NCBI RefSeq assembly: GCF_900019265.1
Contig: NZ_CYGX02000005.1
Span: 208,845-272,844, forward strand
DNA from: Paraburkholderia ribeironis
Lineage (GTDB): Bacteria; Pseudomonadota; Gammaproteobacteria; Burkholderiales; Burkholderiaceae
Length of the DNA: 64,000 nt
Direction: 5' to 3'
The notes beneath the pieces were generated by a model. That model made no database searches, was not told the origin of the DNA, and was given only the letters and a program-made list of their open reading frames with translations. Shown here piece after piece: positions 22,998-43,740 of the stretch. The position numbers and the translations under genes were made by a program. The first letter of the stretch is position 1, and each line of letters starts with the position of its first letter.

Positions 22998-23203
22998 CTA
23001 TAAGTAGGTCCCACCAATGCGGCCTTCGAAGATGGCGGTGTTGATCTCCCAGTCGTCGACGTGGCCCACGGCGCCATTGTCCACGGTGACGACCACGGAG
23101 CGGTCACCGCGCAGCGTCTTCATCTGTTCGGCGGTGAGCGTCACTTCTCATGTGCGTGATCCGCGCGACGCGGCAGGTCTTTGATAATGACAGTGGATTC
23201 CAT
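22998..23203 (-). pseudogene. peptide A: frameshifted member of the exported-peptide family
   Basis: From ATG 23203 the frame reads MESTVIIKDLPRRADHAHEK and stops at 23141. A second frame continues at once as EVTLTAEQMKTLRGDRSVVV and ends GRIGGTYL at 22998. Joined by a 1-nt shift it would give about 68 residues, beginning like the neighbouring leaders (IIKDL). No clear Gly-Gly follows; LRGD occupies the likely site. It has its own strong sigma-54 promoter at 23260-23275. Either a real frameshift, a sequencing error or a divergent member. Confidence 0.5.
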
Positions 23204-23259
23204 GGCGTTACGCCTTGAAGTGGGCGGGAGAGCACGGTGCGGTGCTCAGCCCCGTTTTT

Positions 23260-23275
23260 GCAAGGGCTATGCCAA
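23260..23275 (-). promoter_or_regulatory. sigma-54 promoter of peptide A
   Basis: The minus strand reads TTGGCATAGCCCTTGC, with GG and GC exactly 10 nt apart and a near-consensus -24/-12. It lies 57 nt before ATG 23203. Confidence 0.75.
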
Positions 23276-23333
23276 TGGGCGCGAGACTCGTGAGGAAAAT
23301 CCGGCGCGGGTGGCCACGCGAATCCAGACAAGG

Positions 23334-23386
23334 CAAGCCACTAAGCAAGCCATTAAACGGGCCATTAAACGGGCCACTAGGCAAGC
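23334..23386. repeat. 12-bp tandem repeats (about 4.4 units)
   Basis: Units CAAGCCACTAAG, CAAGCCATTAAA, CGGGCCATTAAA and CGGGCCACTAGG follow in register, plus CAAGC. They lie 60-125 nt upstream of the sigma-54 promoter of peptide A, where activator sites usually sit, and just past the terminator of peptide B. Confidence 0.6.
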
Positions 23387-23417
23387 AAAAACGGCACGCG
23401 CGGGTGGCGCGTGCCGT
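23387..23417 (-). terminator. rho-independent terminator after peptide B
   Basis: A perfect 11-bp stem with a 5-nt loop is followed on the minus strand by TTTTT, 24 nt past the peptide B stop. It would end the D-C-B transcript. Confidence 0.75.
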
Positions 23418-23441: not shown

Positions 23442-23660
23442 CTAGCCGCGCTGCCTGTTGCGCGGGATGGCGGCGTCAATGATGTTCCGATGCGCGCCCG
23501 GAAAGCCGGGCGGATAGTCGACCACGCGCTGTGTCGTCGGCACCAGCGGCGCGGCCATGCTCGATCTCGCGCCGACACGCGCGCCACCGACAACGGCGGC
23601 CATCGCCTGACGGTCCAGTTCGACGCTGTCGGCCAGATCCTTGATGATCAGTTTTGCCAT
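23442..23660 (-). CDS. peptide B: double-glycine leader peptide (72 aa)
   Basis: A 72-aa precursor. The leader MAKLIIKDLADSVELD continues RQAMAAVVGG, with Leu15 (-12), Met20 (-7), Val23 (-4) and Gly25-Gly26, the canonical C39-peptidase leader. The predicted mature part is 46 residues, starts ARVGARSS, is Pro/Arg-rich (PPGFPGAHRN) and has no Cys. It is the last gene of the D-C-B series, with a terminator after it. A strong hairpin separates it from peptide C. Confidence 0.8.
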   Translation of the reverse strand: MAKLIIKDLADSVELDRQAMAAVVGGARVGARSSMAAPLVPTTQRVVDYPPGFPGAHRNIIDAAIPRNRQRG

Positions 23661-24222: not shown

Positions 24223-24504
24223 TTACACGTGGATGTTGTTGCTCGACGTGACGTAGGGATCGACCGTCGACGTGATACCGGCGGCGAACGCGACGTTGTT
24301 GCCGTTGGCGTTCTGGATGTTCAGTTCGTTGCTGATCAGTTGCGTCGCGTCGACCTTCTTGCTGTTGTTCGGCGCGTAGACCGGGCTGAAGTTGTAGTAC
24401 GAGCTCGACGGATAGCCGTAGCCATAGCCGCCGCGCACGGCGCTCATGGCCTTGCTGTCGAGTTGTTCGGTGATGGACAGGTCTTTGATCATCAGCGTGT
24501 TCAT
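24223..24504 (-). CDS. peptide D: double-glycine leader peptide (93 aa)
   Basis: A 93-aa precursor, first gene of the D-C-B series. The leader MNTLMIKDLSITEQLD followed by SKAMSAVRGG is identical to that of peptide E. The mature part (67 residues) starts YGYGYPSSSYYNF and ends TSSNNIHV; it is rich in Tyr, Asn, Ser and Gly and has no Cys. Ribosome site GGAGACTTACC. A GG-N10-GC sigma-54 promoter lies at 24580-24594. Confidence 0.88.
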   Translation of the reverse strand: MNTLMIKDLSITEQLDSKAMSAVRGGYGYGYPSSSYYNFSPVYAPNNSKKVDATQLISNELNIQNANGNNVAFAAGITSTVDPYVTSSNNIHV

Positions 24505-24579
24505 GGTAAGTCTCCTGGAAGAAAATATCGCGGTCTTGCGACTGGGTTCGAGCAACTTGTCTGCTCGGGTGTCACTAAT

Positions 24580-24594
24580 GCACGGGCTGTGCCA
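24580..24594 (-). promoter_or_regulatory. sigma-54 promoter of peptides D-C-B
   Basis: The minus strand reads TGGCACAGCCCGTGC, with GG and GC 10 nt apart, 76 nt before ATG 24504. The surrounding 100 bp are conserved with the promoter of peptide E. The rest of 24505-24928 has no gene; a perfect 12-bp palindrome GTAACCGGTTAC lies at 24841-24852 before the kinase. Confidence 0.75.
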
Positions 24595-24928
24595 GCTATA
24601 TTCAAGGGTCCTGACAAAGTTGGCGGATGCCTTCTGCACAAGGCTTGCGCGTTTCACAGACGAGATGCAGACGGCGCGCTGGCCGTTCGTGCGGATGCCC
24701 GACCGGTGGCGCAACTCCGACACCCGGCCGCATGCTGTTGGACGCCGTGCGACACCGCCGCGGCGCGTACGCCATGCATGGCGCGGGCCAATCCTGGTTT
24801 ACGAAAGCGCGGCCCGGCAGCTAGTATCGAAGCGGCACATGTAACCGGTTACGACAGGTTTTCTATCGGCCCGCGTGGCCTCGGTCGCATGCGATCCGGC
24901 CCAACGGCAGCGGCGGCACTTCGCACAA

Positions 24929-27172
24929 ATGGCTAGCCTTGCGCGTGTGATTCACGACTTCCAGAACGGCGAGCTGTCCCGTGACGAGTTCGTCGCTCAA
25001 CTCGACAGCACGTTGACGACCGAAGGACTCGGTCCCACGCAGCTGCTGGAGATGCTTGGCGCCGCGCATCGCCAGGCGCCTTTACCCGACGATCTCTACG
25101 TGGAAGTGCGGCGACGCATCGAGCAACTGCGCATTTCGAATGTGCCCGCGGGCGGCGAAGAAACCGGCATTCAGACCACGGTGGAGATTCCATCGGTGCG
25201 CTCCACGAGCGCGGGCAGTGCGGGCAGCGCGGGCGGCACGGGCGATGGCGCCAACGCGCAGAATGCCGCCGGACACGACCAGATCAAAGGCACTGGCGAT
25301 ACGCTGAATAACCGCTTCGTGCTCGAGGAATGTCTGGGCATCGGCGGGATGGGCACGGTGTACAAGGCGCTCGATCTGCGCAAGCTCGAGGCGTCCGATC
25401 GCAAACCGTATCTCGCGATCAAGGTGCTCAACGTCCAGTTTCGCGGCAATCCGAATTCGCTCGTCGCGTTGCAGCGTGAAGCGCGCAAGGCGCAAGTGCT
25501 AGCCCATCGCAACATCATCACGGTGTACGACTTCGACCGCGACGGGCCGATCGTCTATCTGACGATGGAGTACCTGAGCGGCAAACCGCTCAGCCAGTTG
25601 CTGCGCACGCCGGGCTATCAGGGCATGCCGGTGCGCGCCGCGTTGCCGATCGTGCGCGGCATGTGCGCGGCGCTGGCCTACGCGCATGAGCGTGGCTTCG
25701 TCCATTGCGATTTCAAACCCGCCAACGTGTTTCTGACGACCAACGCCGAAGTGAAGGTGATCGACTTCGGCATTGCCCGCGTGTTCCAGCGCCCGGAGGA
25801 AGAGAGCGATGCGACGGTGTTCGATCCGGGCAGCCTCGGTGCATTGACGCCCGCGTACGCGAGTCCGGAGATGATCGAGCATCGCGAGCCGGACCCGCGC
25901 GACGATATCTACGCGCTCGGCTGCATCACCTACGAGTTGCTGACCGGACACCATCCGTTCGACCGCCTGTCGGCGACCCAGGCGCGCAACGCCGATTTCA
26001 AGCCGCAGCGGCCGCCCAACCTCGATGCGCGCCAGTGGCGCGCGTTGCGTGCCGCGCTGTCGTTCGATCGAAACACCCGCATGCCGAGCGTGGTGCGCTT
26101 CATCGCCGAGTTCGACAACGAAGCGCGTGCGGAAAAGTCGGGCAAGTTGGCGAAGATGGGCCTCGCGAGTTTCGCCGTGGTGTGCGCGGCGGCGGTCGGT
26201 GTGTTTGCACTGCGCTCGGGGCCGAGTCAGGAGGGCGGGGCACCGGCGAATGTTGGTGCTTCGCAGGCGCCGGCGGAACAGGCGGGGGCGGCGCAGGAGA
26301 AGGCGGTGGCGGTCGTGCCGCCGACCGTGGCGCAATCTGCCGCGCCGGGTCCGGCGTCTGCTGCCGCGACGAACGGCACGGCGCCGGCCACCTCGATTGC
26401 CACGCCAACCACGCCCATTGCAACGCTGCCGGCCGCACCACCAGCTGCAGCGCCAGCCACAGCGAAACCCGAACCGAAACCCGAACCGAAACCCGCACTG
26501 ACCCTGGCCGCCATCACACCCGTGCTGGCCCAGGTGCCATGCTCGGCGCTATCCGCCACCGTGCAGGATCATGCGCTGACGGTGCGTGGCTTCGTCTCGC
26601 AGCGCTATGGCGCGGGGCGCCTGAAGGAAACGCTGGCGGCGTTGCCAGGCGTCGATACGCTGACGCTCGAAGTCGAGCCGCTCGCCGACGACAAGTGCGA
26701 TGCCGTCAAGACGCTCGCGCCACATTGGGTTCGCAACTGGCAAGCCGGTCGCGTGGCGGCATTGCACGTGCGGCCGCCAGGCGGCCAGTTGCGCGACGGC
26801 GATCCGTTGGTGGTCGACGTCACCACGCCGGGCTTCGACTCGTACGTGAATCTCGACTACTACCAGCTCGACGGCAGTGTCGTGCACATGGTGCCGAGTC
26901 CACGCGCGAAGGACAATCAGGCGCCGCCGCACTATGCGGCGACCATCGGCGGCGCTGGTGACTGGATTGTCTCGAAGCCGTTCGGATCGGAGATGCTGGT
27001 GCTGATGATTACGCCGGTGCCGCTGTTCGACAAGCCGCGTCCGGAAAGCGAATCGCGCGCCGACTATCTGCGCGCGCTCGACACGCGGCTCACGCAGATC
27101 GGCGGCAAATACGGCCAGGATCGCATCGTCGCCGACTTCGCACCAATCACGACGAAGCCGCGCACGCCTTGA
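24929..27172 (+). CDS. membrane Ser/Thr protein kinase with DUF4384-like sensor
   Basis: A 747-aa kinase. A short helical N-terminus is followed by a kinase domain (about residues 125-390) with GIGGMGTVYKA, the ATP-binding Lys in LAIKVL, catalytic HCDFKPANVF, DFG and YASPEM, so it looks active. One membrane helix lies near 410-428, then an Ala/Pro linker with repeated KPEP, a BON-like segment and a C-terminal DUF4384-like domain (GDPLVVDVTTPGFDSYVNLD) outside the membrane. I use ATG 24929; ATG 24875 is possible. It is divergent to peptide D and probably signals envelope state to the FHA protein and activator. Confidence 0.9.
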   Translation: MASLARVIHDFQNGELSRDEFVAQLDSTLTTEGLGPTQLLEMLGAAHRQAPLPDDLYVEVRRRIEQLRISNVPAGGEETGIQTTVEIPSVRSTSAGSAGSAGGTGDGANAQNAAGHDQIKGTGDTLNNRFVLEECLGIGGMGTVYKALDLRKLEASDRKPYLAIKVLNVQFRGNPNSLVALQREARKAQVLAHRNIITVYDFDRDGPIVYLTMEYLSGKPLSQLLRTPGYQGMPVRAALPIVRGMCAALAYAHERGFVHCDFKPANVFLTTNAEVKVIDFGIARVFQRPEEESDATVFDPGSLGALTPAYASPEMIEHREPDPRDDIYALGCITYELLTGHHPFDRLSATQARNADFKPQRPPNLDARQWRALRAALSFDRNTRMPSVVRFIAEFDNEARAEKSGKLAKMGLASFAVVCAAAVGVFALRSGPSQEGGAPANVGASQAPAEQAGAAQEKAVAVVPPTVAQSAAPGPASAAATNGTAPATSIATPTTPIATLPAAPPAAAPATAKPEPKPEPKPALTLAAITPVLAQVPCSALSATVQDHALTVRGFVSQRYGAGRLKETLAALPGVDTLTLEVEPLADDKCDAVKTLAPHWVRNWQAGRVAALHVRPPGGQLRDGDPLVVDVTTPGFDSYVNLDYYQLDGSVVHMVPSPRAKDNQAPPHYAATIGGAGDWIVSKPFGSEMLVLMITPVPLFDKPRPESESRADYLRALDTRLTQIGGKYGQDRIVADFAPITTKPRTP

Positions 27173-27248: not shown

Positions 27249-29357
27249 TCAGCGGACATCCTTGACGACCCGCAAGCCATTCTGCGATTGACGCACGCCC
27301 GCGCTGTACTTGAAGCGCGTGGCGGTGAGCATGTAGCCTGCGCCTTCGCGCCATGAACCGCCGCGAATCACGCGCATTTCGCAGCCGGGGCTGTCCCACG
27401 CGTGGCCGTCGACGGGGGCGCTCTGGTAGGTGTTGTGCCAGCAGTCGGCGGTCCATTCCCAGACGCTGCCGTTCATGTCGTACAGCCCGAGTGGATTCGG
27501 GGCGAACGATCCGGCGTTCTCCGGTCCTTCCTTGTGCCACGGATCGCCGCAGTCCTTGCAATTGGCGTTGCCCTTGCGCATCTGGTCACCCCACCAGTAA
27601 GCGGTCGTGGTGCCGCCTCGGTCCGCGTATTCCCATTCCGCTTCGGTGGGCAGGCGGTATGGTTTGCCCGTGATTCTGGCGAGCCATTTCACGTACTGCT
27701 GCGCATCGTCCCAACTCAGATCGCGTGCGGGCGCCGCCTTGTTGGCGTTGCTTTCAGGCGTGAGCTTCTGACACGCATTGGCGGCGACACACGCATTCCA
27801 TTGCTCGACCGTTACCGCGTATTTGCCGATCGCGAACGGCGCGCCGATGCTCACGTGATGGACCGGCTTTTCGGATGGATCGTCGGTACTGCTGCCCATC
27901 GCGAACGAGCCCGCGGGTACGGCGATCATGATCGGGCAGGTCGCGCAATCGCGACTCTCACTGGCGCTGGGCGCGTGCGCGTTGGGCTTTTGCGCGACCG
28001 CTGTCGCGGCGGGCGCAGCCGGCGCGGTGGCTGCGGGCGATGGTGCGGGCGATGGTGCGGGTGTCGCGCGTGGGTGCTCTTGCGCGGGGGGCGTAGCCGG
28101 CGCGATGGGCCGTGCGGCTTGCGGTGCGGGTGCAACCGCGGGTGGCGCTGGCGATGCAGGTGCCGCAACCGCTGGCGCACTCGGTGTTGCCGCCGCCGCG
28201 CGCAGACGATCGATGCGCGCATGCGCGAGCGTGGCAAAGCGGCCGTTCGGATAGGCCTTCAAATAGGCCTCGTAATCGGCCGGATAGTTGCTGTCCTTGA
28301 TCGAATTCCAGAACGTGATTTCGTATTGCTCGCTGCTGTCTTTCGGCAGAATGCCTCTGCTGCGCAGCATCACTACCGGATCGTCGCGAACGGCTAACGC
28401 GTGAGACGCGTTGGCGTTGCGATGAGCGGTTGCGCTCAGGTCGACGGACGAAGGAAGCGCTGCCGCGAGCCACGGCTTCTGCGCATCGTGGGTCGCATCG
28501 CGAACCTGCGCCGCGACGCGTTGAAACAGATCGGCGAGGGTGGGCGCCGCAGCGCCGTTCAGCGCGCGCAGCAGTGCCTCCGTATAAACGCCGTGCCGTG
28601 TCGCGTCCGCAGCGAAGCCACCGGGCGCGGTTGCATATGCGATCACGGTGTCGGCGGGCAACGCGGGCGTGGTGCCTGTCGCGTTGGGCGAGAACGGATT
28701 GTTCAGGCACGTATCGAGAATCACGAGATTGAGGCGACCTGCGCGCGGCGCATGCATCGCCTGCAGCACGGTATTCAAATCGACGCCTTGATTGATCAGC
28801 GACGCGGGCGAGCGTGGGTCGAGTCCTGCGGGAATCAGCAGCGTGCGCCGCCCGATCTGCATGCCATGTCCGGCGAAATAAAACAGACCGACGCCGCCTG
28901 CTCGCAGACGCTGCCGGAATTCGCCGATCGCCTGCTGCATTTGCTGCGGCGTCGCATTCGTGCGCGTGATGACATCGAAGCCGAGCGCATGGAGCGTGTC
29001 GCGCAGCGCTTGCGCGTCGCGTGGTGCGTTGTCCCGCACCGGGTCCGCGAGATCGCCATACGCGCCGTTGCCGATGACGAGCGCAATGCGGGGAGAACGT
29101 GCGTCTCCGTCGCCGATTGACGATGCAAATGGCGCGAACGACGCAAATGGCGCGTTCGGTGCGTATGGCGCGATCGGTGTAAATAACCCAGGCGCCGCCT
29201 CTGCCGTCACAGTGACCGCGCTCGCATTGGCTGCGATGTTCGCAATCGTCGCGCCCCGCAGCGCGTCTTCACGTTGCGTCGACGCACAGGCACTGCCCCA
29301 TTGCGCGTCGATTGCTCCGGCCACGCACATCAGCAGGAATATTCGCCACATCTTCAT
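27249..29357 (-). CDS. secreted caspase-like (C14) protease fused to SUMF1/FGE domain
   Basis: A 702-aa protein with a signal peptide. The caspase-like domain (about 88-310) has its His164 in YFAGHGMQ and Cys217 in [10 protein letters not shown], so the dyad is intact. An Ala/Pro linker follows, then a formylglycine-enzyme-like SUMF1 domain (about 475-702) with [25 protein letters not shown] and VIRGGSW. Such SUMF1 domains often bind or cleave rather than make formylglycine. It is convergent with the kinase gene. Placement suggests periplasmic processing of, or response to, the exported peptides; unproven. Confidence 0.88.
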
Positions 29358-29715
29358 ATCCTGTTTGTACCGGACAGAACGTAGGCATTCGAGGACCGCG
29401 CTGCTCGCAGCGTTCGCTGGAGTACTTCAGGCAAAGCAACGATGCCGCTATCGACCATCCGCTTGCAACCCTTTATTAACGATAGCACGCGATTTGCATG
29501 TCACAACGTTCGCGTGTCCTTGATGCGTCTTACGGTTAACGAGTGTCGCGTATCTTTTTGGCAAGTTACGTCCTAAGCTCATTAACAAAGTAATGCGCCA
29601 CGGTCGTTTTAACTAGGTGGCTGACCGGTCACCCACGTTAGCGACATCGAGCCGGAACGCTCGGCCTGCCTTGCGCAGCCGGGTTGGCCGTGACCGATCT
29701 TCGGGAGAGTGCGCT

Positions 29716-30213
29716 ATGCGAAGAAATCTCGTCCCCGTTGTCCTCGACAGACCTCATCGAGTCAATGCGCGCTTTGGCGCGTTGCGCGCGGCCGCATGCG
29801 CGGCGCTCTGTGTCGCGCTCGGCAGCGTCATGCCGCCCGGTTCCGCTCTGGCGGAGCAGACGCCAGCGCCGCCCGGCGCCGAGGAGTACATCATCTGGCC
29901 GGCCGATGGCGCGGTGATTCACGGCGGCAAGCTGTGGGTGCGCATGGGCTTGCGCAACATGGGCGTGTGCCCGAAGGGCATCGTGTTTCCGAACACCGGC
30001 CATCATCATCTGCTGATCGACACCGACCTGCCGCCGCTCGACCAGGAGATCCCATCGGATCGCAATCACCTGCACTTCGGCGCGGGTGAAACGGACGCGC
30101 GTATCGAGTTGCCGCCGGGCAAGCACACCTTGCAGCTGATTCTCGGTGACCACAATCACGTGCCGCACGTGCCGCCCGTGTATTCGAAAAAGATCACCAT
30201 CACCGTGCAATAA
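29716..30213 (+). CDS. DUF4399 exported protein 1
   Basis: A 165-aa protein with an N-terminal export signal ending near SALAEQ. The DUF4399 body contains NTGHHHLLIDTDLPPLDQEI, SDRNHLHFGAGET and LPPGKHTLQLILGDHNHVPH. The His clusters suggest metal binding, which is inference. The start at 29716 has GGGAGAG upstream. It is followed 52 nt later by a paralogue. The preceding 358 bp (29358-29715) hold no gene. Confidence 0.85.
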   Translation: MRRNLVPVVLDRPHRVNARFGALRAAACAALCVALGSVMPPGSALAEQTPAPPGAEEYIIWPADGAVIHGGKLWVRMGLRNMGVCPKGIVFPNTGHHHLLIDTDLPPLDQEIPSDRNHLHFGAGETDARIELPPGKHTLQLILGDHNHVPHVPPVYSKKITITVQ

Positions 30214-30265
30214 CACGAGCCCGATTCGTTCGAGTAACGCGTGTCAGTCAGGACGGAGAGACCTC

Positions 30266-30700
30266 ATGTACAAGCTCATTGCGGTCGCGGCGCTCGTGAC
30301 GTCGGCGGTATTGGCCGCGCCGGGTTTCGCCGTGGCCGGCACCACACCGGCGCCGCCCGATGCGCATGTTTATATCGGCTATCCGAACGATGGCCAGGTC
30401 GTGCCCGCCAACAAACCCTTCCGCGTATGGTTCGGCTTGCGCTTCATGGGTGTCGCGCCCAAAGGCGTCAAGTACCCCAATACCGGCCACCATCATCTTC
30501 TGATCGATACCGATCTGCCGCCGATGGACCAGGAGATTCCATCGGACCGCAACCATTTGCATTTCGGCGCGGGCGAAACGGAAACGATGATTCAACTGCC
30601 GCCGGGCAAACACACGTTGCAGCTACTGTTGGGCGATGACATGCACATCCCCCACAACCCGCCGGTGTACTCGAAGAAGATCACGGTCATCGCGCGGTGA
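30266..30700 (+). CDS. DUF4399 exported protein 2
   Basis: A 144-aa paralogue of the gene before it, with signal MYKLIAVAALVTSAVLAAPG and the same GHHHLLIDTDLPPMDQEI and HLHFGAGETE blocks. Tandem duplication is clear. Both sit between the caspase/SUMF gene and peptide E and are likely periplasmic helpers in the same cluster, or bystanders. A 10-bp inverted repeat follows at 30727-30759. Confidence 0.85.
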   Translation: MYKLIAVAALVTSAVLAAPGFAVAGTTPAPPDAHVYIGYPNDGQVVPANKPFRVWFGLRFMGVAPKGVKYPNTGHHHLLIDTDLPPMDQEIPSDRNHLHFGAGETETMIQLPPGKHTLQLLLGDDMHIPHNPPVYSKKITVIAR

Positions 30701-30892: not shown

Positions 30893-30969
30893 ATGAGTGA
30901 CGCCCGAGCAGACAAGTTGCTCGAACCCACGCGCAAGACCGCGCAGTTTCCCTTCCCAGGAGAGTTACC

Positions 30970-33296: not shown

Positions 33297-35933
33297 ATGG
33301 CCACCGGCGAAGCTCCGATTGCTGAGATGGGCGCGACCATGGACGCTGCTTTCGACGTGGTGCTGTCGCCGGTTGCGTCCGCGCAACGCCCCGCGCTCGA
33401 CGCAATCCGGATCGTCGACGACCTGTTCGCAATCGGGCGCAGCGAGGCGCCGTTTACCGATTACCCCACTGAACGAATCGCGCGTCTGTCGCGCCGTCAT
33501 GCGCGCATTTTCACCGAGCACGGCGCGGCCTACGTCGCCGACCTCGGCAGCAAGAACGGCACGACGCTGAACGGCGCCCCGGTGCGGCAAACGCCGGCGC
33601 GCCTGCGAGCCGGCGACCAACTGTGCTTTGGCGGCGAGCTTTGCTACCGGGTGGGGATCGAGCCGCGTGCGCGGATCGTCGCGGCCGCTGCCGCAGCGCC
33701 CGCGCCAGGCCTGTTGCTGGTGCCGCAGCGCGACGACCTCGGCTTGCAGCCGATCGAGGTCAAGGCATTCCCGTTTCTCGTCAGCAAGACGGACGACGTC
33801 TTTGCGCGCTACAAGGATCGCTACCCGCATCAGGTCAACTACATCTCGCGGCGTCACGCGCACATCTTTCTGAAGGGCGGTGATCTCTACGTCGAGGATC
33901 TCGGCAGCACCAACGGTACGTTCGTCGGCGCAAAGCGTCTGGACGAGTCCGCGTTGCCGCTGCGGGACGGCGACCTCGTTGCATTTGGCGGCGACCACTT
34001 CGTCTACAGGGTGTCGTTGCAGAACCCCGCTGACGCCGAACCCACCGTGACCCAGCTATTCCTCGCTCCAGCTGTCGACGATGCGGCGGATGCCGACAAG
34101 ACTACGTTCGTCGGCGCCGCGCATTCGTTCCTCGATATCTTTTGCGTCGATCCGGCGCTACAACGCGAAGACGAAATCAACGAAACGGCACAACGCGTCT
34201 GCGCGCATGCGAAGCGCGATACACCGACTGGCGCCGCGAGAGGTGCGATCGAGGGCAAAGGAGTGAGCGGTACGCATGGAGCTAGCGGCGTGAACGGTGC
34301 GGGCAGTACCGGCGACGCGCGTGCTGCGAGCCGCTCAGGCAGCGCGAGCGCCACGAAACGCAAGCCGCGACGCTGGCGCCTGCTCGCCGGCGAACTCGGC
34401 AAGGCGTTCGCGGACGGCGATCGCCCGAACGTGAGACGCGTCGCGGGTTGGGGCGGTGCGGGTGTCGTCGTGCTGGCGGCAATCGCTGCGACGCTTTATC
34501 TGCATGGTTCGTCGGAGCGCGAATTGAAGAACCTTCTGGCGAGCGGCGATTACGCGAGCGCGGTCGCGGCGGCGAAGGGTTATCTGGCGAATCATCCGAC
34601 CGATACGAAGGTCAGTGCGCTCGCCAGTGAAGCGCTGCTGAAGGCGGAGCTCCCAGGCTGGCTGAACGCGCTGCAAAAGGCGCAGTTCGATCAGGCCGAC
34701 GCGCTGCTCAAGGAGATGCGCTCGTTGAGCGCGAACAATGCGGACGCCACGTCGCTGGTCGGCGAACTGCAGTGGGTGGGCGATCTGGAACGCTTCGTGG
34801 CGACGCGCGGCGGTGTGGACGCGCCGATCCGCATGTATGCGGACGAATCCACCATCAACAATCTGCTGCAGCGCTGGGACGATGACGCGAAAAGTCACCA
34901 GCGCGCGCTCGACCGGATTGCGTCGTACGTGCCGGTGTTTGCCGAGCCCTACGCGCTGGCGCTGAGTCATCTGCGCAAGCTGGAAAGCGACGACTCGGTG
35001 TATGTCGCCGCGATCGACCGGCTGAACGGCGTGATACGCACCGAACTGGCACGCGATAAACCCGACGCGCTGCCGCCCGTGCTCGACGATTACGCGCAGC
35101 GTTATCCGCGGCTGGCGGGTCTCGATCGGGTGCGCGAGGATTTGCGCCAGTACGCCGCCATGCTGAATGCCGCGCTCAGCCGTCAACTGACGCCACTGCT
35201 CGCGATGCTGAAGTCCGTGCGTTTCAGCACGCCGCCTTTTCAGGCGCAGTTCCGGCAACTGGCCGCGAGCCGTTTGCCGTCCGCGGACGTGATCCGGCGG
35301 CTTGACGCAGTGAGCGAGGCCTGGCAGCGCGGCGACGCTCGCGAGGCGCTGGCCGGTTTGCAGGCGATGCCGGCCGGGCCCTGGTCCGACGTGCTTGCGG
35401 CGGAAGCCGCGCACAAGAAGGCGCTGCTCGACCAGTACACCGATTTGCAGAAGACCCGCGGCGGCAAGGACTACGACCAGCGGCTGCTGTCGTTCTACGC
35501 GAGTCTCGATCCGCAGGCGGACGTCTGGTTCGTGCAGGCGATCCAGAAAGATGTCGCCGCGTTGCACGACAAGGCGCTGGCGCGTGCGCAAGACCTGCTG
35601 CTGCGCGCGCAGAGCCTGTGGAAACAGTATCGCGCGAGCGGTTCGATCGGCGGCACGCAACGGCTCGAAGCGGGTATCTCGCCGGGCTTTCGCAGCGAGG
35701 CGCGGTTGCTGTCCGATGCGCAAACGACGGCGCAGCAGGGCATGCGTATCTATACGCAATTGAAGGCCGATCATCCGGCCGAGTTCGATCGCCTGCTCGC
35801 GGATATCGAGGCCGAAGCCAGCTTGCAGCGCCGCTCGTTGACGGAGTTGCGCATGGTGCTGGACCCGGAACTGTTGAAGGCGAAGCTGGCGTTGATCGGA
35901 GGCGAGCAGAGTGAAGCGCGATCCTCACCCTAG
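33297..35933 (+). CDS. double-FHA membrane protein
   Basis: An 878-aa protein. Two FHA phosphothreonine-binding domains lie at about 35-120 (LSRRHARIFTE, DLGSKNGTTLNG) and 150-245 (ISRRHAHIFLKG, DLGSTNGTFVG), both with the RRH and N-G cores. A disordered basic segment leads to one membrane helix near 385-403, then about 470 residues of periplasmic helical repeats. It heads the exporter operon and overlaps the HlyD gene. It probably links the kinase to the exporter by binding phosphorylated partners. Confidence 0.88.
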   Translation: MATGEAPIAEMGATMDAAFDVVLSPVASAQRPALDAIRIVDDLFAIGRSEAPFTDYPTERIARLSRRHARIFTEHGAAYVADLGSKNGTTLNGAPVRQTPARLRAGDQLCFGGELCYRVGIEPRARIVAAAAAAPAPGLLLVPQRDDLGLQPIEVKAFPFLVSKTDDVFARYKDRYPHQVNYISRRHAHIFLKGGDLYVEDLGSTNGTFVGAKRLDESALPLRDGDLVAFGGDHFVYRVSLQNPADAEPTVTQLFLAPAVDDAADADKTTFVGAAHSFLDIFCVDPALQREDEINETAQRVCAHAKRDTPTGAARGAIEGKGVSGTHGASGVNGAGSTGDARAASRSGSASATKRKPRRWRLLAGELGKAFADGDRPNVRRVAGWGGAGVVVLAAIAATLYLHGSSERELKNLLASGDYASAVAAAKGYLANHPTDTKVSALASEALLKAELPGWLNALQKAQFDQADALLKEMRSLSANNADATSLVGELQWVGDLERFVATRGGVDAPIRMYADESTINNLLQRWDDDAKSHQRALDRIASYVPVFAEPYALALSHLRKLESDDSVYVAAIDRLNGVIRTELARDKPDALPPVLDDYAQRYPRLAGLDRVREDLRQYAAMLNAALSRQLTPLLAMLKSVRFSTPPFQAQFRQLAASRLPSADVIRRLDAVSEAWQRGDAREALAGLQAMPAGPWSDVLAAEAAHKKALLDQYTDLQKTRGGKDYDQRLLSFYASLDPQADVWFVQAIQKDVAALHDKALARAQDLLLRAQSLWKQYRASGSIGGTQRLEAGISPGFRSEARLLSDAQTTAQQGMRIYTQLKADHPAEFDRLLADIEAEASLQRRSLTELRMVLDPELLKAKLALIGGEQSEARSSP

Positions 35934-37284
35934 GCCTTTGTCGGAGGCGCTGGAAGATCACAGCGTCGAGGGCATCGCGATCCTGACCGCCGAGCCGGTG
36001 CGGCTCGCGCGTGCGTTGATCTGGGCGATGGTCGCGCTGGTAGTGGCTGGCTTGCTGTGGTCGTTCGTCGGCCGCGCGGATGTGATCGTCAGCGCGCAAG
36101 GGACCTTGTCGCCGGAATCGGAAGTGCGCCGCATCTACGCGCCGATCGACGGCGAACTGGCGGACCTTTATATCGCGGAGGGGCAGCCGGTGTCGAAAGG
36201 CGACGTGCTGGCGCGGCTGAATGCGCGCGGCGCGATCGAGGCGGCGAGCAATGCGCTGCAGGCGCAACTCAAACTCGAGGACGCCGAGCGCGACTGGAAG
36301 CAGTTCCCGGAGAAGAAGGCGCTGATGGAGCGCAAGGCCGCCGCGCTCAAGGCGCAGATGGAAGTGGAAGCGCGTCTGCACGAAAACCGCGTCTCCGAAG
36401 GCACCACCAAGCTTGCAGAAGGGCAGAAGGCCGAACTCGACGAAGCGCGCAGCGTGCTCGACAACGCGCGGCGCACACGCGAGGCGGCGCGTCAGGAACT
36501 GGACCGTTACTCGAAACTGTTCGCGCAACCAGGCGGTGGCGGCATCGCCGAATTGCAGGTTGAACAGAAGCGCACAGCTGCCATGGAAGCGGACAATGCC
36601 TACCGTGTCGCGCAATCGAAACTGGCGGAACTCGACTTTCGCCTGAGTCATGAATATGCGCAGGCGAATGCGCAACTCCAAACCAGCGGCCAGCAGACCA
36701 CTGACCTGCAGCTGCAATACGATGCCGCGGTGCGCGATATCACCGACGCGGAAGACAAGCTGCGTCTGCAATTGCAGACTGCTCGCCTCGTGTCCGAAGC
36801 TGCCGCCCGCGTTCGCTTCGAGAACATCGACAAGGACAATTTTCTGCTGATCTTAGCTCCAGTCTCGGGCGTCATCACCGACGTGACGTCGACGCAACGC
36901 GGCGACAAGATCCAGGCGAACGCGCCGCTCGGCGGTATTGCGCCGAAAGATGCGCGGCCGGTGCTGAAGATCGAGATCGCCGAACACGATCGCGCCTTTC
37001 TGCATGAAGGCTTGCCGGTCAAGCTGAAATTCAACGCGTTTCCGTACCAGCGCTATGGCTTGATCAGCGGCACGCTTGCGTATATCTCGCCGGCCACCAA
37101 ACCGTCGTTGCAGGACAAGCAACCGGTCTACGAGGGGCGCGTCACGCTCGAGCAGGACTACTACCAGATCGCCGGCACGCGTTATCCGTTGCGCTACGGT
37201 ATGACCGCCAACGCGGAGATCGTGGTGCGCGAGCGGCGCCTGATCGATCTGGGTCTCGACCCGTTCAGGCAGGTGGCGGGTTGA
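35911..37284 (+). CDS. HlyD-family membrane-fusion protein
   Basis: A 457-aa adaptor. A cytoplasmic start (about 30 residues) leads to a membrane helix (ALIWAMVALVVAGLLWSFVG), a first half-lipoyl segment (VRRIYAPIDGELADLYIAEG), a long coiled coil and a C-terminal half-lipoyl/beta-barrel region (LAPVSGVITDVTSTQRGD). It starts at GTG 35911 inside the FHA gene end (23-nt overlap), so the two are coupled. It would bridge the C39 ABC exporter and the TolC-like protein. Confidence 0.9.
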   Translation: MKRDPHPRPLSEALEDHSVEGIAILTAEPVRLARALIWAMVALVVAGLLWSFVGRADVIVSAQGTLSPESEVRRIYAPIDGELADLYIAEGQPVSKGDVLARLNARGAIEAASNALQAQLKLEDAERDWKQFPEKKALMERKAAALKAQMEVEARLHENRVSEGTTKLAEGQKAELDEARSVLDNARRTREAARQELDRYSKLFAQPGGGGIAELQVEQKRTAAMEADNAYRVAQSKLAELDFRLSHEYAQANAQLQTSGQQTTDLQLQYDAAVRDITDAEDKLRLQLQTARLVSEAAARVRFENIDKDNFLLILAPVSGVITDVTSTQRGDKIQANAPLGGIAPKDARPVLKIEIAEHDRAFLHEGLPVKLKFNAFPYQRYGLISGTLAYISPATKPSLQDKQPVYEGRVTLEQDYYQIAGTRYPLRYGMTANAEIVVRERRLIDLGLDPFRQVAG

Positions 37285-37321: not shown

Positions 37322-38074
37322 ATGACCGCGATAGTGCGTATCGATGATGAAGTCGTGGACGTGGCCGAGTTCATTCGTCTTCTGAAGCTGACCGGCCAGT
37401 TCGAGAGCCTGATCGAGCAGATCGTGCGCGACAAGCTCACGGTGCATGCGGCGAAGAAGCAGGGCGTCGTGGTGAGCGCCGATGAAATCCAGCAGCGCGC
37501 CGACCAGTTCCGCCGTGTGCGCGGCTTGCATCGCGCGACGGATATGAACCAGTACCTCGACGCATTGAACGTGAACCTCGACGAGTTCGAGGCGTTCATC
37601 ACGGACGGCTTGTATCAGGAGAAGATGCTCGACGAAGTGGGCAACGAAGCCGCGATCAGGGACTACTTCGCGCTGAATTCGCCGAAGTTCGACGCGATCG
37701 AGGTGAGCCATATCGTGCTCGACAGCGAGGGCAAGGCGAAGGAAATGATTTCATATCTGCGCGACGATCCCGACAGCTTTGCCGACATGGCGCGCGAGCA
37801 TTCGATCGCCGATACGCGCGAAGCGGGCGGCGTGATCGGCAAGGTGCTGCGCGGCTCGTTGAAGCCGGACATCGAAGCGAAGATTTTCAACGCGGCGGTG
37901 GGCGATCTGCTGGGGCCGTTCGCGTCGGCGGATCGCTCGTGCTTCGAGATTTTCGCCGTGACGGCCAAGTATCCGGCGACGCTCGACGCGGACGTGGCCG
38001 CCGAAGTCAGGCGGTTGTTGCGCGAGAGCTGGTTGATGGCGCGTGCGCAGGAGCATGTGATCGAAGCGCGCTAG
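37322..38074 (+). CDS. leaderless SurA/parvulin-type peptidyl-prolyl isomerase
   Basis: A 250-aa protein with a SurA-like N-terminal helical part and a parvulin domain (about 120-215) with VSHIVLDSEGKAKEMI, FADMAREHSIADTREAGG and IFNAAVGDLLGPFAS. It lacks a signal peptide, so unlike SurA it should act in the cytoplasm. Lying between the HlyD and ABC genes, it is likely a chaperone that keeps precursors unfolded for export. Confidence 0.85.
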   Translation: MTAIVRIDDEVVDVAEFIRLLKLTGQFESLIEQIVRDKLTVHAAKKQGVVVSADEIQQRADQFRRVRGLHRATDMNQYLDALNVNLDEFEAFITDGLYQEKMLDEVGNEAAIRDYFALNSPKFDAIEVSHIVLDSEGKAKEMISYLRDDPDSFADMAREHSIADTREAGGVIGKVLRGSLKPDIEAKIFNAAVGDLLGPFASADRSCFEIFAVTAKYPATLDADVAAEVRRLLRESWLMARAQEHVIEAR

Positions 38075-41100: not shown

Positions 41101-41254
41101 GGTGATCATCGCGCATCGGCTGAGCACGATCATGCGGGCGGACAAGATTCTCGTGCTGTATGAAGGCGCGATCGTCGAACAGGGCCGTCATGAAGAGTTG
41201 ATTCAGCGCGGTGGCATGTACTACCAGTTGGTCCAGAAACAGTTGAGCGCATGA
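38198..41254 (+). CDS. peptidase-containing ABC exporter with two cNMP-binding domains
   Basis: A 1018-aa protein. Two cyclic-nucleotide-binding domains (about 15-130 and 155-270) precede a C39 peptidase (about 305-430). Its catalytic Cys317 (MDCGAACLAM), His390 (YHYVVVYG) and Asp406 (VADPALG) are all present. A six-helix exporter domain (about 445-735) and an ATPase domain with Walker A GRSGSGKTT, signature LSGGQ and Walker B LLVFDEATSALD follow. It should cut the leaders after Gly26 and export the mature peptides. The twin cNMP domains are unusual and imply gating by cAMP, cGMP or a dinucleotide. It overlaps the activator gene by 4 nt. Confidence 0.95.
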   Translation: MDAPQTAPSTAEFLASVEILSPFSRDEIERLADYAQARFYSFGETVCSAGEVADGLYVVRTGSVRIFTEEHGKEVSVGVRKSGEIFADIAMLRTYVHEASVRASAKTELLFIPRTAIEPVITGNEAALAFVASYVAINSAGGFVAQLFDLRGKLNKAELEEYVRSVGVKRVAAGKEILKQDGREDRRLYVVRQGSVRIVRHEEGHDYTLATLGEGEIFGEKACLMRQEQMASAVAATDTRLLVIPERTVHFILERNPKLREVLDERIRYGDRELQRQKRLEQRRKLPLMLDLQSKPEFGEKVIKRFALVEQAEEMDCGAACLAMVCRHYSIPMTLGKLRELANVTTQGATLDSLARAGESLGFTARGVQCTFDSLRGFELPFIVHWEGYHYVVVYGLSKEYVWVADPALGFRKLTVEDFERGWSGTCLLFTGGPQLLQMSAARSPWIRFVGYLKPYRKILGHLFLATFVIQVLGVIPPLIIQNILDGVIVHQNVSLLHLLIGGLIISNVFSQLMSTIRAYLANFMVRNMDFAMMSQFFRHTMSLPFSFFAKRKTGDIFARFQENQTIRAFLTESTVTTALNLLMVFIYFTIMFVYNVKMTLVLIAFVIPIMALTALATPKIKAYAREVFTASTDSKSFLMEALAGVETVKGMGIERPVRLRWEKKYAKALEVQYRAHAFNILVGAGSQLLNAATTIAILWVGANLVLARELTIGQLIAFNAFMGSVLGPLMGLVGLWSMLNDAGVAMERLGDVLDIEPEQKPQDLPSRVMLPELQGEISLSGVYFRYGENDSAYVLENISFDIKPGELVAIVGRSGSGKTTLAKLLVGFYAPTEGKMTIDGYDLGVVDKAYYRAQIGYVMQSNLLFSGTIAENIASGDDAPERRRIEEVAKMADAHAFISKMPLGYEQIVGERGIGLSGGQIQRLCIARALYHDPRLLVFDEATSALDSQSESNILGNMHDILKGRTAVIIAHRLSTIMRADKILVLYEGAIVEQGRHEELIQRGGMYYQLVQKQLSA

Positions 41255-42615
41255 TGATGAAGATACTCGACCAGATTGAAGAGGCCAGTCCGGCGATTTC
41301 CTATGCGGGCTTGATCGAGCGGATCGAGATACTGCGCTCGACCTTGCGCTGGTCGTCGCGGCTGGAGCGCACGGACATCGACAAGCTGCTCAGGCAGGCC
41401 ACCTCGTTACGCGACGAGGTGATGCAGCTTTCGCACAAGGAGCGTTTCGTGCAGGCGGCGGTGGCCGCCGAGCCGCAACAGCCCGCCGATCAATCGCGCG
41501 CTGCGCGCAGAAAGGCGCTGCTCGAACGCAGCTTTATTTTCGAAGGGACGTTCGGCGACAATCCGCGCCTGCTCGAGTCGCTTGAAATCGCCGAAAAGGC
41601 GGCGCCGACCGACTTGCCCGTGTTGATCGACGGTGAAAGCGGCACTGGCAAGGAATTGATGGCGAAAGTGATTCATGCGAACGGCTCGCGCTCGGACAAG
41701 CCGTTCATCTCCGTGAACTGCGGCGCGATTCCTGAAAATCTGCTGGAGTCCGAACTGTTTGGACATCGCAAAGGCGCGTTTACGGGCGCTTCGAATGATC
41801 GCAAGGGAAAATTCGAAAGCGCGCATACGGGGACCATCTTTCTCGACGAAATCGGCGAGTTGCCGCTCGCCGGCCAGGTGAAACTGTTGCGCGTGCTCGA
41901 AGCGCATGAGATCCAGCGCGTGGGGTCGGACGAACCGATCGCGGTCGACACGCGCATCGTCGCGGCCACCAATCGCAATCTGCGGCAGCTCAGCGAAGAG
42001 GGCAAATTCCGCGAGGACCTGTTCTACCGGCTCAGCGTGATTCACGTCACGTTGCCGCCATTGCGCGAGCGCCGCGATGAAATACCGCTGCTGATCTCAT
42101 GGTTCGGCGACGAGGCCGCCGGCACGTTAAAACGCCGTCCCGTCAGACTGACGCCGCGTTTGCGCGACTTTCTGCTGAACTACGCGTTTCCGGGCAATAT
42201 TCGCGAACTGCGCAACGTAATGTATCGGGTGTCGTGTCTTGCGGGGGACATGGCGGATGTCGATCATTTGCCGCTGGACATGCGGCCGGCGGCGCCGGGC
42301 TCGGCGGCTGCAGCGGGCGGCGCGAGCGCGACCGGTCAGGAGCCGATCAGCGTGGCCAATCTGATGTCGCTGAGCGACGCCAAACGGGCCGCCAGTGACG
42401 ATGCCGAGAAAGCCTTTCTGGAACGTGGTCTGCGCGAAGTGAGCGGCACTGTCGCCGAACTCGCGCGGCGCATCGACATGAACCGCTCGCATCTGCAAAT
42501 GCTGTTGAAGAAGCACGGCTTGCATTCGAAGGATTTCCGCAATCGCAATGTGCAAGCCGCGAACCGCAATGGCACCGACGAACGCGAGCGCGACGAAGAA
42601 GACGGCGAGACATGA
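41251..42615 (+). CDS. sigma-54-dependent transcriptional activator
   Basis: A 454-aa bacterial enhancer-binding protein. A short N-terminal domain of about 95 residues, not a receiver, precedes the AAA+ domain with Walker A GESGTGKE (128-135), the sigma-54 contact loop GAFTGA (175-180) and LDEIGELPL. A Fis-type helix-turn-helix lies near 410-435 (VAELARRIDMNRSHLQMLLK). It starts in an ATGA overlap with the exporter gene. It is the only such activator in the window and is the natural candidate for the four peptide promoters. With no receiver, Ser/Thr phosphorylation or FHA binding may control it. Confidence 0.92.
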   Translation: MMMKILDQIEEASPAISYAGLIERIEILRSTLRWSSRLERTDIDKLLRQATSLRDEVMQLSHKERFVQAAVAAEPQQPADQSRAARRKALLERSFIFEGTFGDNPRLLESLEIAEKAAPTDLPVLIDGESGTGKELMAKVIHANGSRSDKPFISVNCGAIPENLLESELFGHRKGAFTGASNDRKGKFESAHTGTIFLDEIGELPLAGQVKLLRVLEAHEIQRVGSDEPIAVDTRIVAATNRNLRQLSEEGKFREDLFYRLSVIHVTLPPLRERRDEIPLLISWFGDEAAGTLKRRPVRLTPRLRDFLLNYAFPGNIRELRNVMYRVSCLAGDMADVDHLPLDMRPAAPGSAAAAGGASATGQEPISVANLMSLSDAKRAASDDAEKAFLERGLREVSGTVAELARRIDMNRSHLQMLLKKHGLHSKDFRNRNVQAANRNGTDERERDEEDGET

Positions 42616-42676
42616 ATTCGAGCCCGGGTCCAGGTCCAGGCACGCGCCCCACTCCGAGCCCTATCTGACGGCGCCG

Positions 42677-43447
42677 TCAGGGCGACGGATTGAGCAGGGT
42701 TTTGTCGGACGCATTCGGGTCTTCTGCTTGCACGACCACCGCAGTGATATTGTCGCGGCCGCCGCGTGCGAGTGCCAGCTCGACCAGTTCCTCGGACGCC
42801 TTCTCGCGCTGCGGCGAGGTCAACACCGAGACTATCTCGTCATCGCTGAGTTCGTTGCTCAGGCCGTCGCTGCATAGCAGGAACACATCGCCATCGGCGA
42901 CTTCGATCACATCGTCGTCGAGTTCGAGCAGATCGGTCGCCCCCACCGCACGCGTGATCATATGCTGCGCCGGATGATGGCGCGCTTCTTCATCGGTGAT
43001 CACGCCGAGCGATTTGAGCTGTTCCACCTGACTGTGATCGCGCGTGAGTTGCCGCAAGCGTCCTTCGCGATACAGATAGATGCGGCTGTCGCCCGCCCAC
43101 AGATAACCGCAGAAGCGATCGCACGCGAGCAGCGCCACCACCGTGCTGCCGATGCGCTGCACCTGACGGCGCGCGGCTTCGTCGCGCAGTTGACGGTTGG
43201 CGGTCTGCAGGCGCGCACGCGCGTCGGCAATCAGCGTCTTCATGCTGACGGGCGCCGCGAGCCGGCTCAGCGCGTCGATCACCAGACGGCTCGCCAGATC
43301 GCCGACCGCATGTCCGCCCATGCCGTCGGCGACGGCCCAGCGCCCGGGTTCGGGCTGGTCGAGGCAGGCATCTTCGTTGATTTCGCGGACGCGGCCGACG
43401 TCGGAGCGAGCGGACGACGTCCAGCGAAATTGGCTCGCACAGGTCAC
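42677..43447 (-). CDS. PP2C-family Ser/Thr phosphatase
   Basis: A 256-aa soluble PP2C phosphatase: SDVGRVREINEDA, ADGMGGHAVGDLAS, YLWAGDSRIYLYREG, SDGLSNELSDDEI and GRDNITAVVV, with all metal-binding Asp residues visible. It should reverse kinase action. Its start lies 5 nt after the stop of peptide F, so both come from one sigma-54 promoter: peptide induction would also raise phosphatase, giving feedback. It is convergent with the activator gene across a 16-bp palindrome (42665-42680). Confidence 0.93.
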   Translation of the reverse strand: MTCASQFRWTSSARSDVGRVREINEDACLDQPEPGRWAVADGMGGHAVGDLASRLVIDALSRLAAPVSMKTLIADARARLQTANRQLRDEAARRQVQRIGSTVVALLACDRFCGYLWAGDSRIYLYREGRLRQLTRDHSQVEQLKSLGVITDEEARHHPAQHMITRAVGATDLLELDDDVIEVADGDVFLLCSDGLSNELSDDEIVSVLTSPQREKASEELVELALARGGRDNITAVVVQAEDPNASDKTLLNPSP

Positions 43448-43452
43448 AACGG

Positions 43453-43740
43453 CTACACCGTATCGTTTCTACTGCGCGCGTCGGGAGAGACGCTGATGTT
43501 CGAGTTCGCGCCGGTGTTGCGGACGTCGACGGACTGGAACTGATTGATCATCTGGTTAGCATAGAAGTTGTTGGACACCTCGTACAGGTTGACGACAGGT
43601 CCAATACTCGGGGTCTCGCGCACATAGGGCTGAATCCAGCCATACACCCACGGCGCGCCACCGCCGCCGCGAATGGCTGCCATCGCTTTACGGTCGAGAG
43701 CGAGGTTCAGCGAGAGGTCGTTCACTGTAATGCAGGACAT
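43453..43740 (-). CDS. peptide F: double-glycine leader peptide (95 aa)
   Basis: A 95-aa precursor. The leader MSCITVNDLSLNLALD then RKAMAAIRGG keeps Leu15, Met20, Ile23 and Gly25-Gly26. The mature part (69 residues) starts GGAPWVYGWIQ and has a central YANQMINQFQSVDVRN that recalls the Asn/Gln stretch of peptide C. No Cys in the mature part. It lies in one operon with the PP2C gene under a strong sigma-54 promoter. Confidence 0.85.
   Translation of the reverse strand: MSCITVNDLSLNLALDRKAMAAIRGGGGAPWVYGWIQPYVRETPSIGPVVNLYEVSNNFYANQMINQFQSVDVRNTGANSNISVSPDARSRNDTV

What the first reader, a model, noticed from the sequence alone, without database searches (positions are those of the whole stretch)
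22998..43740. A family of double-glycine leader peptides scattered through one 21-kb cluster
Five intact small genes (B, C, D, E, F) have Gly-Gly at exactly residues 25-26, with Leu at 15, Met at 20 and Val/Ile at 23: the -12/-7/-4/-2/-1 pattern cut by C39 peptidases. The shared block is LDxxAMxAVxGG. Mature parts of 46-69 residues lack Cys and are rich in Asn, Ser, Gly, Tyr or Gln. They are too long and unlike common bacteriocins, and I know no named family. With a C39 exporter in the same cluster this looks like an undescribed secreted-peptide system. Roles could be toxin, signal or surface polymer.
Basis: partly seen in the sequence, partly recalled or inferred. Interest (0 to 1): 0.95.

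Follow-up and report, generated by a model that had tools for sequence, protein, structure and literature searches.

The report
Co-regulated peptide family with dedicated exporter
Soil and plant bacteria related to Paraburkholderia carry a set of small genes that share one export-tag motif and sit near an exporter gene with a predicted tag-cutting domain; the genes are predicted to be switched on together, and their products would likely be secreted and assemble into a protein matrix on or around the cell.

Summary
In detail: five intact small genes (B-F) carry a 26-residue double-Gly leader, and the leader's DNA pattern occurs at these five places only in the 7.28-Mb genome. A sixth member (A) is frame-broken here. 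New here: D/E and F have a sigma-54-type box at a nearly fixed distance before the ATG (48 of 58 and 26 of 27; random segments 2%), and the exporter operon encodes a sigma-54 activator. Remote peptide arrays in other genomes have the same box. Mature parts of C, D/E and F share an Asn-rich, Cys-free core under purifying selection and match no curated family. Likely working: the activator switches the peptides on, the exporter cuts and exports them, and they build a surface matrix, as EbfG peptides of Synechococcus do. Sequences, boxes and co-occurrence are shown; activation, cleavage, secretion and assembly are inferred, and two structure-type tests gave no support for assembly. Toxin or signal roles are not excluded. 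New variant of a known kind.

The parts
22998..23203 (-). Gene A, sixth family member, frame-broken here; intact 68-aa orthologues elsewhere (Gly-Gly at 33-34)
23442..23660 (-). Peptide B, 72 aa, leader 1-26, mature 46 aa
23850..24134 (-). Peptide C, 94 aa, leader 1-26
24223..24504 (-). Peptide D, 93 aa, leader 1-26; first gene of an inferred D-C-B unit
30970..31254 (+). Peptide E, 94 aa, leader 1-26; lies directly before the channel gene of the exporter operon
43453..43740 (-). Peptide F, 95 aa, leader 1-26; 5 nt before the phosphatase gene, same strand
24579..24594 (-). sigma-54-type -24/-12 box of D (score 13.5 of 15)
30878..30893 (+). sigma-54-type box of E (14.0 of 15)
43802..43817 (-). 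sigma-54-type box of F (13 of 15)
23259..23274 (-). sigma-54-type box before the broken gene A (13.5 of 15)
24875..27172 (+). Ser/Thr protein kinase (weak C-terminal DUF4384 match, below cut-off)
27249..29357 (-). Caspase domain (C14) fused to an FGE-sulfatase domain
29617..30213 (+). DUF4399 protein, first copy
30146..30700 (+). DUF4399 protein, second copy (ORF from its first GTG; real start probably later)
31282..33009 (+). NodT/TolC-type outer membrane channel (ORF from its first GTG; real start probably later)
33297..35933 (+). Protein with two FHA domains
35911..37284 (+). HlyD-type adaptor
37322..38074 (+). Parvulin-type prolyl isomerase, below cut-off match to TIGR04500
38198..41254 (+). 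Exporter: two cNMP-binding domains, C39 peptidase, ABC transporter
41251..42615 (+). sigma-54 activator (GAFTGA present, no receiver domain among Pfam matches)
42677..43447 (-). PP2C-type phosphatase
44190..44792 (+). LRAT-domain protein, divergent from F; membership of the regulon uncertain

Best explanation
This cluster encodes small peptides with one shared double-glycine leader motif beside a cNMP-C39 exporter gene, and it likely works as a sigma-54-switched export system whose cut peptides would assemble into a matrix on or around the cell. Steps: (1) the sigma-54 activator encoded at the end of the exporter operon is predicted to turn on the units D-C-B, E, F-phosphatase and, where intact, A (boxes shown, activation inferred). 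(2) The leader is predicted to dock on the C39 domain and to be cut after Gly26 (motifs shown, cleavage inferred). (3) Exporter, HlyD adaptor and channel would carry the 46-69-residue mature peptides across both membranes, with the parvulin as possible helper (genes shown, transport inferred). (4) cNMP domains, kinase, phosphatase and FHA protein would gate export (genes shown, role inferred). (5) C, D/E and F, which share an Asn-rich Cys-free core, would co-assemble outside the cell into a fibre or matrix, with the tightly conserved F as possible anchor or nucleator (inferred).
For: Leader specificity: 5 hits in the whole genome, all in this cluster. Leader-exporter co-occurrence 109 of 110 against 2 of 34, and 55 of 57 against 1 of 162. 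Exporter motifs present. sigma-54-type boxes: D/E 48 of 58, F 26 of 27, C 0 of 26, B 1 of 30, random 250-nt segments 2.0% of 3000; distance of box to ATG 83-101 nt (D/E) and 56-103 nt (F), backwards control 0 of 58 and 1 of 27; 76 of 80 named F loci, at 59-99 nt; machine genes mostly without it, e.g. kinase 0 of 27, FHA 0 of 31, channel 2 of 31. Shared mature core: D/E-F 87%, C-F 74% profile probability. Purifying selection, mature omega 0.136-0.374. Composition: Cys 0%, Asn 15-16% in D/E, F and C, near-neutral. Precedent: EbfG1-4 with the C39 protein PteB; EbfG1-3 gave amyloid signals in E. coli (passages).
Against: No experiment. The polymer step is weakly supported: the beta-amphipathic test gave P<0.05 in only 5 of 23 C, 7 of 54 D/E and 0 of 27 F, and P 0.18-0.50 for the window's own peptides; the F model is unusable and the D model has no assigned strands; Foldseek found nothing; none of the 52 D/E members matched a curlin model in Pfam. 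B is unrelated to the core. The D/E-C profile link is weak, 22%. The box is not enriched by plain count in the window (28 against 35 expected) or genome (18 against 15 backwards); its evidence is position. No shared activator site was established. My simple pattern for the Arg motif of cNMP domains found nothing, so the ligand is open. G334 and G115 have four leader hits but no such exporter.
Confidence: 0.5

Rival explanations
1. Secreted toxins: antibacterial microcin-like or contact-dependent peptides exported by the C39 system, or peptides that lyse the producer's own kind.
For: Double-Gly leader plus C39 exporter is the classic layout of microcins and of the Cdz system (passages); Neisseria Naps show that bacteriocin-like peptides can promote autolysis (abstract). 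B is cationic.
Against: GxxxGxxxG in only 5 of 147 peptides; purifying selection and a conserved orthologous set rather than rapid turnover; leader of 26 residues and mature Gly of 5-8% in D/E, F and B against 15-18 residues and 12-26% quoted for class II microcins. No immunity gene was recognised among the neighbours annotated, but I made no systematic search for one.
Confidence: 0.2
2. Secreted signals: the peptides report cell density or state to neighbours and feed the kinase/phosphatase/FHA pathway.
For: HetC, a cNMP-C39 exporter, is needed for heterocyst differentiation and is proposed to export a signal (passages and discussion section); kinase, phosphatase and FHA genes lie in the cluster.
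Against: Mature parts of 46-69 residues in five classes are long and many for a signal (general knowledge). No two-component histidine kinase or peptide-receptor domain among the cluster proteins scanned.
Confidence: 0.12
3. Precursors of modified peptides (RiPPs), matured before export by the FGE-like or parvulin protein.
For: The parvulin matches TIGR04500 'putative peptide maturation' (4.6e-27, 95 bits, cut-off 180), and peptides B, D and E resemble RiPP leader families weakly (E 0.014-0.11, all below cut-off).
Against: No ATP-grasp, radical SAM or lanthionine enzyme among the cluster proteins scanned; mature parts lack Cys, the residue that formylglycine-generating enzymes act on (general knowledge).
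Confidence: 0.08

Closest known systems
EbfG1-4 / PteB of Synechococcus elongatus PCC 7942 (PMC4997328 and PMC9981879, passages seen)
   Same: Several small GG-leader proteins (9-10 kDa precursors, 6-7 kDa mature) tied to a C39-domain protein; roles redundant; biofilm matrix.
   Different: EbfG proteins are reported to lack homologues; I did not compare their sequences. Here there is a sigma-54 box, an activator in the exporter operon, cNMP domains, and kinase, phosphatase and FHA genes. Biofilm and amyloid are untested here.
HetC of Nostoc PCC 7120 (PMC10986499, passages, discussion section)
   Same: cNMP-binding part, C39 peptidase and ABC transporter in one protein, in that order.
   Different: HetC has one cNMP domain, no adaptor gene nearby and no known GG substrate gene nearby; here two cNMP matches, HlyD and channel genes, and substrates in the cluster.
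Cdz bacteriocin of Caulobacter crescentus (PMC5380434, passages)
   Same: Small leader proteins with a type I exporter, kept on the cell surface as aggregates.
   Different: Cdz proteins carry hydrophobic glycine zippers and come with the immunity gene cdzI; glycine zippers are nearly absent here (5 of 147).
Fap amyloid system of Pseudomonas (PMC5557850, passages)
   Same: Asn/Gln-rich subunits and a C39-type peptidase.
   Different: FapD is a separate periplasmic peptidase, Fap proteins lack canonical C39 sites, and FapF is a barrel channel; here an ABC-fused C39, canonical leaders and a NodT/TolC channel.
Class II microcins (PMC10680697, passages)
   Same: GG leader and a nearby C39 exporter.
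   Different: Leader 26 residues instead of 15-18; mature Gly mostly below 12%; no immunity gene recognised.

Membership tests
GG peptides exported by a C39 ABC exporter (PCAT) | Leader with hydrophobic residues at -12, -7, -4 and Gly-Gly at -2/-1 | tested here: met
   L15, M20, V/I23, G25, G26 in five of five
GG peptides exported by a C39 ABC exporter (PCAT) | Catalytic Cys, His, Asp of C39 and ABC motifs in the exporter | tested here: met
   QAEEMDCGAA, HWEGYHY, ADPA, Walker A, LSGG, SALD, H-loop
GG peptides exported by a C39 ABC exporter (PCAT) | Peptides occur together with the exporter | tested here: met
   109 of 110 against 2 of 34; 55 of 57 against 1 of 162
GG peptides exported by a C39 ABC exporter (PCAT) | Cleavage after Gly-Gly and secretion | not testable with these tools
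   needs mass spectrometry
EbfG/PteB-type matrix peptides | Several small GG proteins plus a C39 exporter | tested here: met
EbfG/PteB-type matrix peptides | Biofilm role and amyloid formation | not testable with these tools
   needs mutants and staining
EbfG/PteB-type matrix peptides | Sequence homology to EbfG | not tested
   EbfG sequences were not fetched
Curli or Fap amyloids | Match to a curated family model of these subunits | tested here: not met
   no such match for the five peptides, for 52 D/E members against Pfam or for 18 F members against NCBIfam
Cdz contact-dependent bacteriocins | Extended glycine zipper GxxxGxxxG | tested here: not met
   5 of 147 peptides have one
Cdz contact-dependent bacteriocins | Immunity gene next to the peptide genes | tested here: inconclusive
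   none recognised among annotated neighbours; no systematic search
Class II microcins | Leader of 15-18 residues and 12-26% Gly (quoted in PMC10680697, passage) | tested here: not met
   leader 26; mature Gly 5% D/E, 8% F, 7% B, 12% C (mature parts only, so not exactly the paper's measure)
HetC-type cNMP-C39 exporters | cNMP, C39 and ABC domains in one protein in this order | tested here: met
HetC-type cNMP-C39 exporters | Ligand (ppGpp in vitro for HetC) bound by the N-terminal part | not testable with these tools
   needs a binding assay
RiPP precursors | Precursor family match above cut-off and a modifying enzyme nearby | tested here: not met
   best E 0.014, below cut-off; no typical modifying enzyme among proteins scanned

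The most novel reading that the evidence does not exclude
A new class of bacterial surface polymer: a sigma-54 regulon of short double-Gly peptides, cut and exported by a nucleotide-gated C39 exporter under kinase/phosphatase control, that co-assembles several paralogous Asn-rich subunits (C, D, E, F) with a cationic partner (B) into a fibre unrelated in sequence to curli and Fap, some genomes adding further subunits from remote arrays.
Probability: 0.35. Interest if true: 0.85.

Novelty: new variant of a known kind. Interest (0 to 1): 0.72.

Why it matters
If true, a large group of soil, plant-associated and symbiotic bacteria (Paraburkholderia, Caballeronia, Burkholderia and relatives) has an unrecognised secreted-peptide system with its own transcription switch, exporter and probable phosphorylation control. 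Leader plus sigma-54 box gives a simple genome-wide way to find its substrates, remote arrays included. It would also supply candidate substrates for a cNMP-C39 exporter, the point left open for HetC, and a genetically tractable case of GG-peptide matrix outside cyanobacteria.

Tried and rejected
Toxin readings: glycine zipper nearly absent (5 of 147), purifying selection; kept as a rival. Curlin, Fap and RiPP families: no match above cut-off. PDB sequence profiles: D/E no match at E 10, F best E 0.13, C best E 0.43, none meaningful. Structure: D model pLDDT 68 overall and 83-89 in residues 51-90 without assigned strands; F model pLDDT 41, unusable; Foldseek found no match for D, so VIA-align had nothing to compare. 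Beta-amphipathic periodicity: not supportive. Shared palindromic activator site upstream of D/E and F: best dyad in 5 of 58 and 3 of 27 upstream regions, above letter shuffles but GC-rich, so inconclusive. Peptides beside exporters outside the family (L105, L106, L109-L115): I recognised none with a looser leader pattern; several of these contigs end nearby. Defence-system models: only generic kinase, ABC, caspase, phosphatase and cNMP similarity. sigma-70 promoters and terminators at 30600-31700: none found.

Literature: ten full-text searches listed no paper that I could recognise as treating this cluster; only listings were seen for most hits, the library is open-access only, and the 2004 screen of Gram-negative genomes for GG peptides by Dirix et al., known to me only from reference lists, was not read. 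Papers opened: PMC4997328, PMC9981879, PMC5380434, PMC5557850, PMC13174018, PMC10680697 (passages), PMC10986499 (passages and discussion section), PMC11798529 (outline and abstract).

Rows dropped or limited: one search dropped 1 of 147 harvested peptides as spurious and re-sorted 26 unassigned ones by hand-made rules. One search used the first copy where a genome has two and 10 of 12 close genomes for F, because F was not harvested in two. One search left out peptides with under 200 nt upstream (C 26 of 27, the satellite class 3 of 4). One search kept the best 80 of 191 loci. Box weights and the threshold of 13 were set by me; the consensus is recalled.
Full report
Observation. The five genes have Gly-Gly at residues 25-26, and ten leader columns are invariant. 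With one mismatch allowed, the leader DNA pattern is found at these five places only in the 7.28-Mb genome and never in the backwards control. Gene A (22998-23203) is a sixth member whose frame is broken here; 68-aa orthologues with the Gly-Gly at 33-34 are open in L069, L085 and L087.

Surroundings. The exporter operon runs on the + strand: NodT/TolC channel, FHA protein, HlyD adaptor, parvulin, cNMP-cNMP-C39-ABC exporter, sigma-54 activator. Around it lie a Ser/Thr kinase, a caspase-FGE protein, two DUF4399 proteins, a PP2C phosphatase and an LRAT protein. Main catalytic motifs of exporter, kinase, caspase domain, phosphatase and activator are present; my simple pattern for the cNMP Arg motif found nothing.

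Conservation of the unit. The N-terminal 431 residues of the exporter are found in 110 of 144 genomes of the genus (E 1e-60), in 79 of 249 genomes of the family from 7 of 25 genera (E 1e-30; 22 of the 79 are the same genus) and in 10 of 369 genomes of the class, the window's own included (E 1e-40). In the 18 Burkholderiaceae neighbourhoods that I fetched (10, 8), peptide F and the phosphatase sit side by side in 18 of 18. Two exporters from other families (L105, L106; 68% and 63% identical over this part) keep channel, FHA, HlyD, parvulin, exporter and activator in the same order; in more distant relatives exporter, HlyD, parvulin and activator recur in part. Named carriers of F include Paraburkholderia, Caballeronia, Burkholderia sp., Cupriavidus, Pararobbsia and Massilia (best 80 of 191 loci). 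In these 80 loci, which reach up to 4.5 kb from F, the phosphatase is found in 79, the LRAT gene in 78, the activator in 74 and the exporter in 73. In G018 an F-type leader lies about 39 kb from the exporter. In G264 and G243 a kinase-D-C-B block lies roughly 100-120 kb from the exporter, still together. So in these cases peptides stay with the kinase or the phosphatase when the cluster splits.

Two or more leader hits occur in 109 of 110 genus genomes with the exporter and in 2 of 34 without (Fisher P 1.7e-28); in 219 genomes of other genera, in 55 of 57 and 1 of 162 (P 3.6e-48). With one hit as the bar it is 110 of 110 against 10 of 34, and 57 of 57 against 37 of 162: single one-mismatch hits occur by chance. 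The genomes are related, so the P values overstate independence. Exceptions: G004 (two one-mismatch hits), G115 (86% complete, four hits) and G334 (four hits); in a full-length search at E 1e-60 G115 gave only matches to the ABC part and G334 none.

Peptide classes. A harvest from the window and 74 loci gave 147 peptides; one was dropped as spurious, leaving D/E 58, F 27, C 27, B 30 and 4 others. Profile comparison of mature parts links D/E with F (87%) and C with F (74%), D/E with C weakly (22%), and not B. Composition: no Cys in rounded percentages, Asn 15-16% in D/E, F and C; B differs, with Ala 19, Pro 13, Arg 12% and mean charge +4.7. Selection is purifying in leader and mature parts among 12 close genomes (10 for F); F is tightest (mature omega 0.136), the others 0.311-0.374. 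The 120 listed of 258 relatives of D, where named, are Paraburkholderia or Burkholderia. No Pfam or NCBIfam family reaches its cut-off.

sigma-54 control, a new finding. I scored a recalled -24/-12 consensus with GG and GC required. Boxes of at least 13 of 15 lie within 250 nt upstream of D/E in 48 of 58 and of F in 26 of 27 cases, at 83-101 and 56-103 nt from the ATG; C 0 of 26 and B 1 of 30, as expected inside a D-C-B unit; random segments 2.0% of 3000. Backwards control 0 of 58 and 1 of 27. In 80 named F loci 76 have a box at 59-99 nt; background 3.0%. Machine genes mostly lack it: kinase 0 of 27, caspase-FGE 1 of 29, DUF4399 0 of 29, channel 2 of 31, FHA, HlyD and parvulin 0 of 31 each, activator 0 of 32, phosphatase 0 of 27, exporter 1 of 6. 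LRAT has it in 14 of 25 in that scan but 18 of 78 in a shorter-range scan of named loci, so its place in the regulon is uncertain. In the window 11 sites reach 13; the three best belong to E, A and D, with F at 13. Against it: by plain count the box is not enriched in the window (28 against 35 expected) or genome (18 against 15 backwards); the evidence is position. Sequences are related, so the counts are not independent. Remote peptide arrays in genomes of the genus labelled g10 also have boxes 79-80 nt before the ATG in 10 of 18 array genes listed.

Structure and periodicity. The D model has pLDDT 83-89 in residues 51-90 but no strand assigned, which could mean a rung that needs neighbours, or nothing. 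The F model is too poor to read. The beta-periodicity test gave P<0.05 in 5 of 23 C, 7 of 54 D/E, 0 of 27 F and 9 of 29 B, and in none of the window's five; it does not support the polymer idea.

How it most likely works. Shown: leader, exporter motifs, co-occurrence, boxes, conserved set. Inferred: activation, cleavage, export, gating, assembly. I favour a matrix because several conserved paralogues with an Asn-rich Cys-free core, nearly no glycine zipper and no immunity gene recognised resemble in logic the EbfG peptides of Synechococcus (passages) more than Cdz (passages) or class II microcins (passages). Neisseria Naps (abstract) show that bacteriocin-like peptides may promote autolysis, so a lytic role stays open.

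Known or new. Ten full-text searches listed no paper that I recognised as treating this cluster (calls named under Tried and rejected). It belongs to the broad GG-peptide/C39 kind, and its exporter layout is that of HetC, but its peptides match no curated family tested and I know of no described GG-peptide system with this sigma-54 and kinase/phosphatase setting. I rate it a new variant of a known kind.

Noticed in passing
L107, L108, L119, L121, L122: Tandem arrays of related peptides away from the exporter, with a 24-residue leader (LDRAEMxAIxGG type), a different mature part and sigma-54-type boxes 79-80 nt before 10 of 18 listed genes.
   Followed up: partly
window 22998-23203: Gene A is frame-broken with Gly-Asp in place of Gly-Gly, but still has a sigma-54-type box; intact copies exist in relatives.
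   Followed up: partly
window 31268-31293: A perfect 26-nt palindrome lies between peptide E and the channel gene; no T-run terminator was found there.
   Followed up: no
window 24223-24504 and 30970-31254: D and E share their first 38 residues and an identical leader-core DNA; in C, D and E synonymous divergence is lower in the leader than in the mature part (0.10-0.17 against 0.35-0.41), but not in F, and hardly in B, as if leaders were homogenised or constrained in DNA.
   Followed up: partly
L116, L120: In G264 and G243 the kinase gene stays with D, C and B roughly 100-120 kb from the exporter.
   Followed up: partly
L083, L084 (G129, 5.2-Mb genome): Several cluster genes look broken or shortened (FHA, caspase-FGE, kinase, exporter match over 313 of 431 residues), as if the system were decaying there.
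   Followed up: no
window 50001-52000: GC content drops to 0.519 against 0.617 and 0.638 in the neighbouring 2-kb steps.
   Followed up: no
window 45920-46993: ORF that looks by eye like a class A beta-lactamase next to a LysR-type gene, just outside the cluster; not scanned against any library.
   Followed up: no
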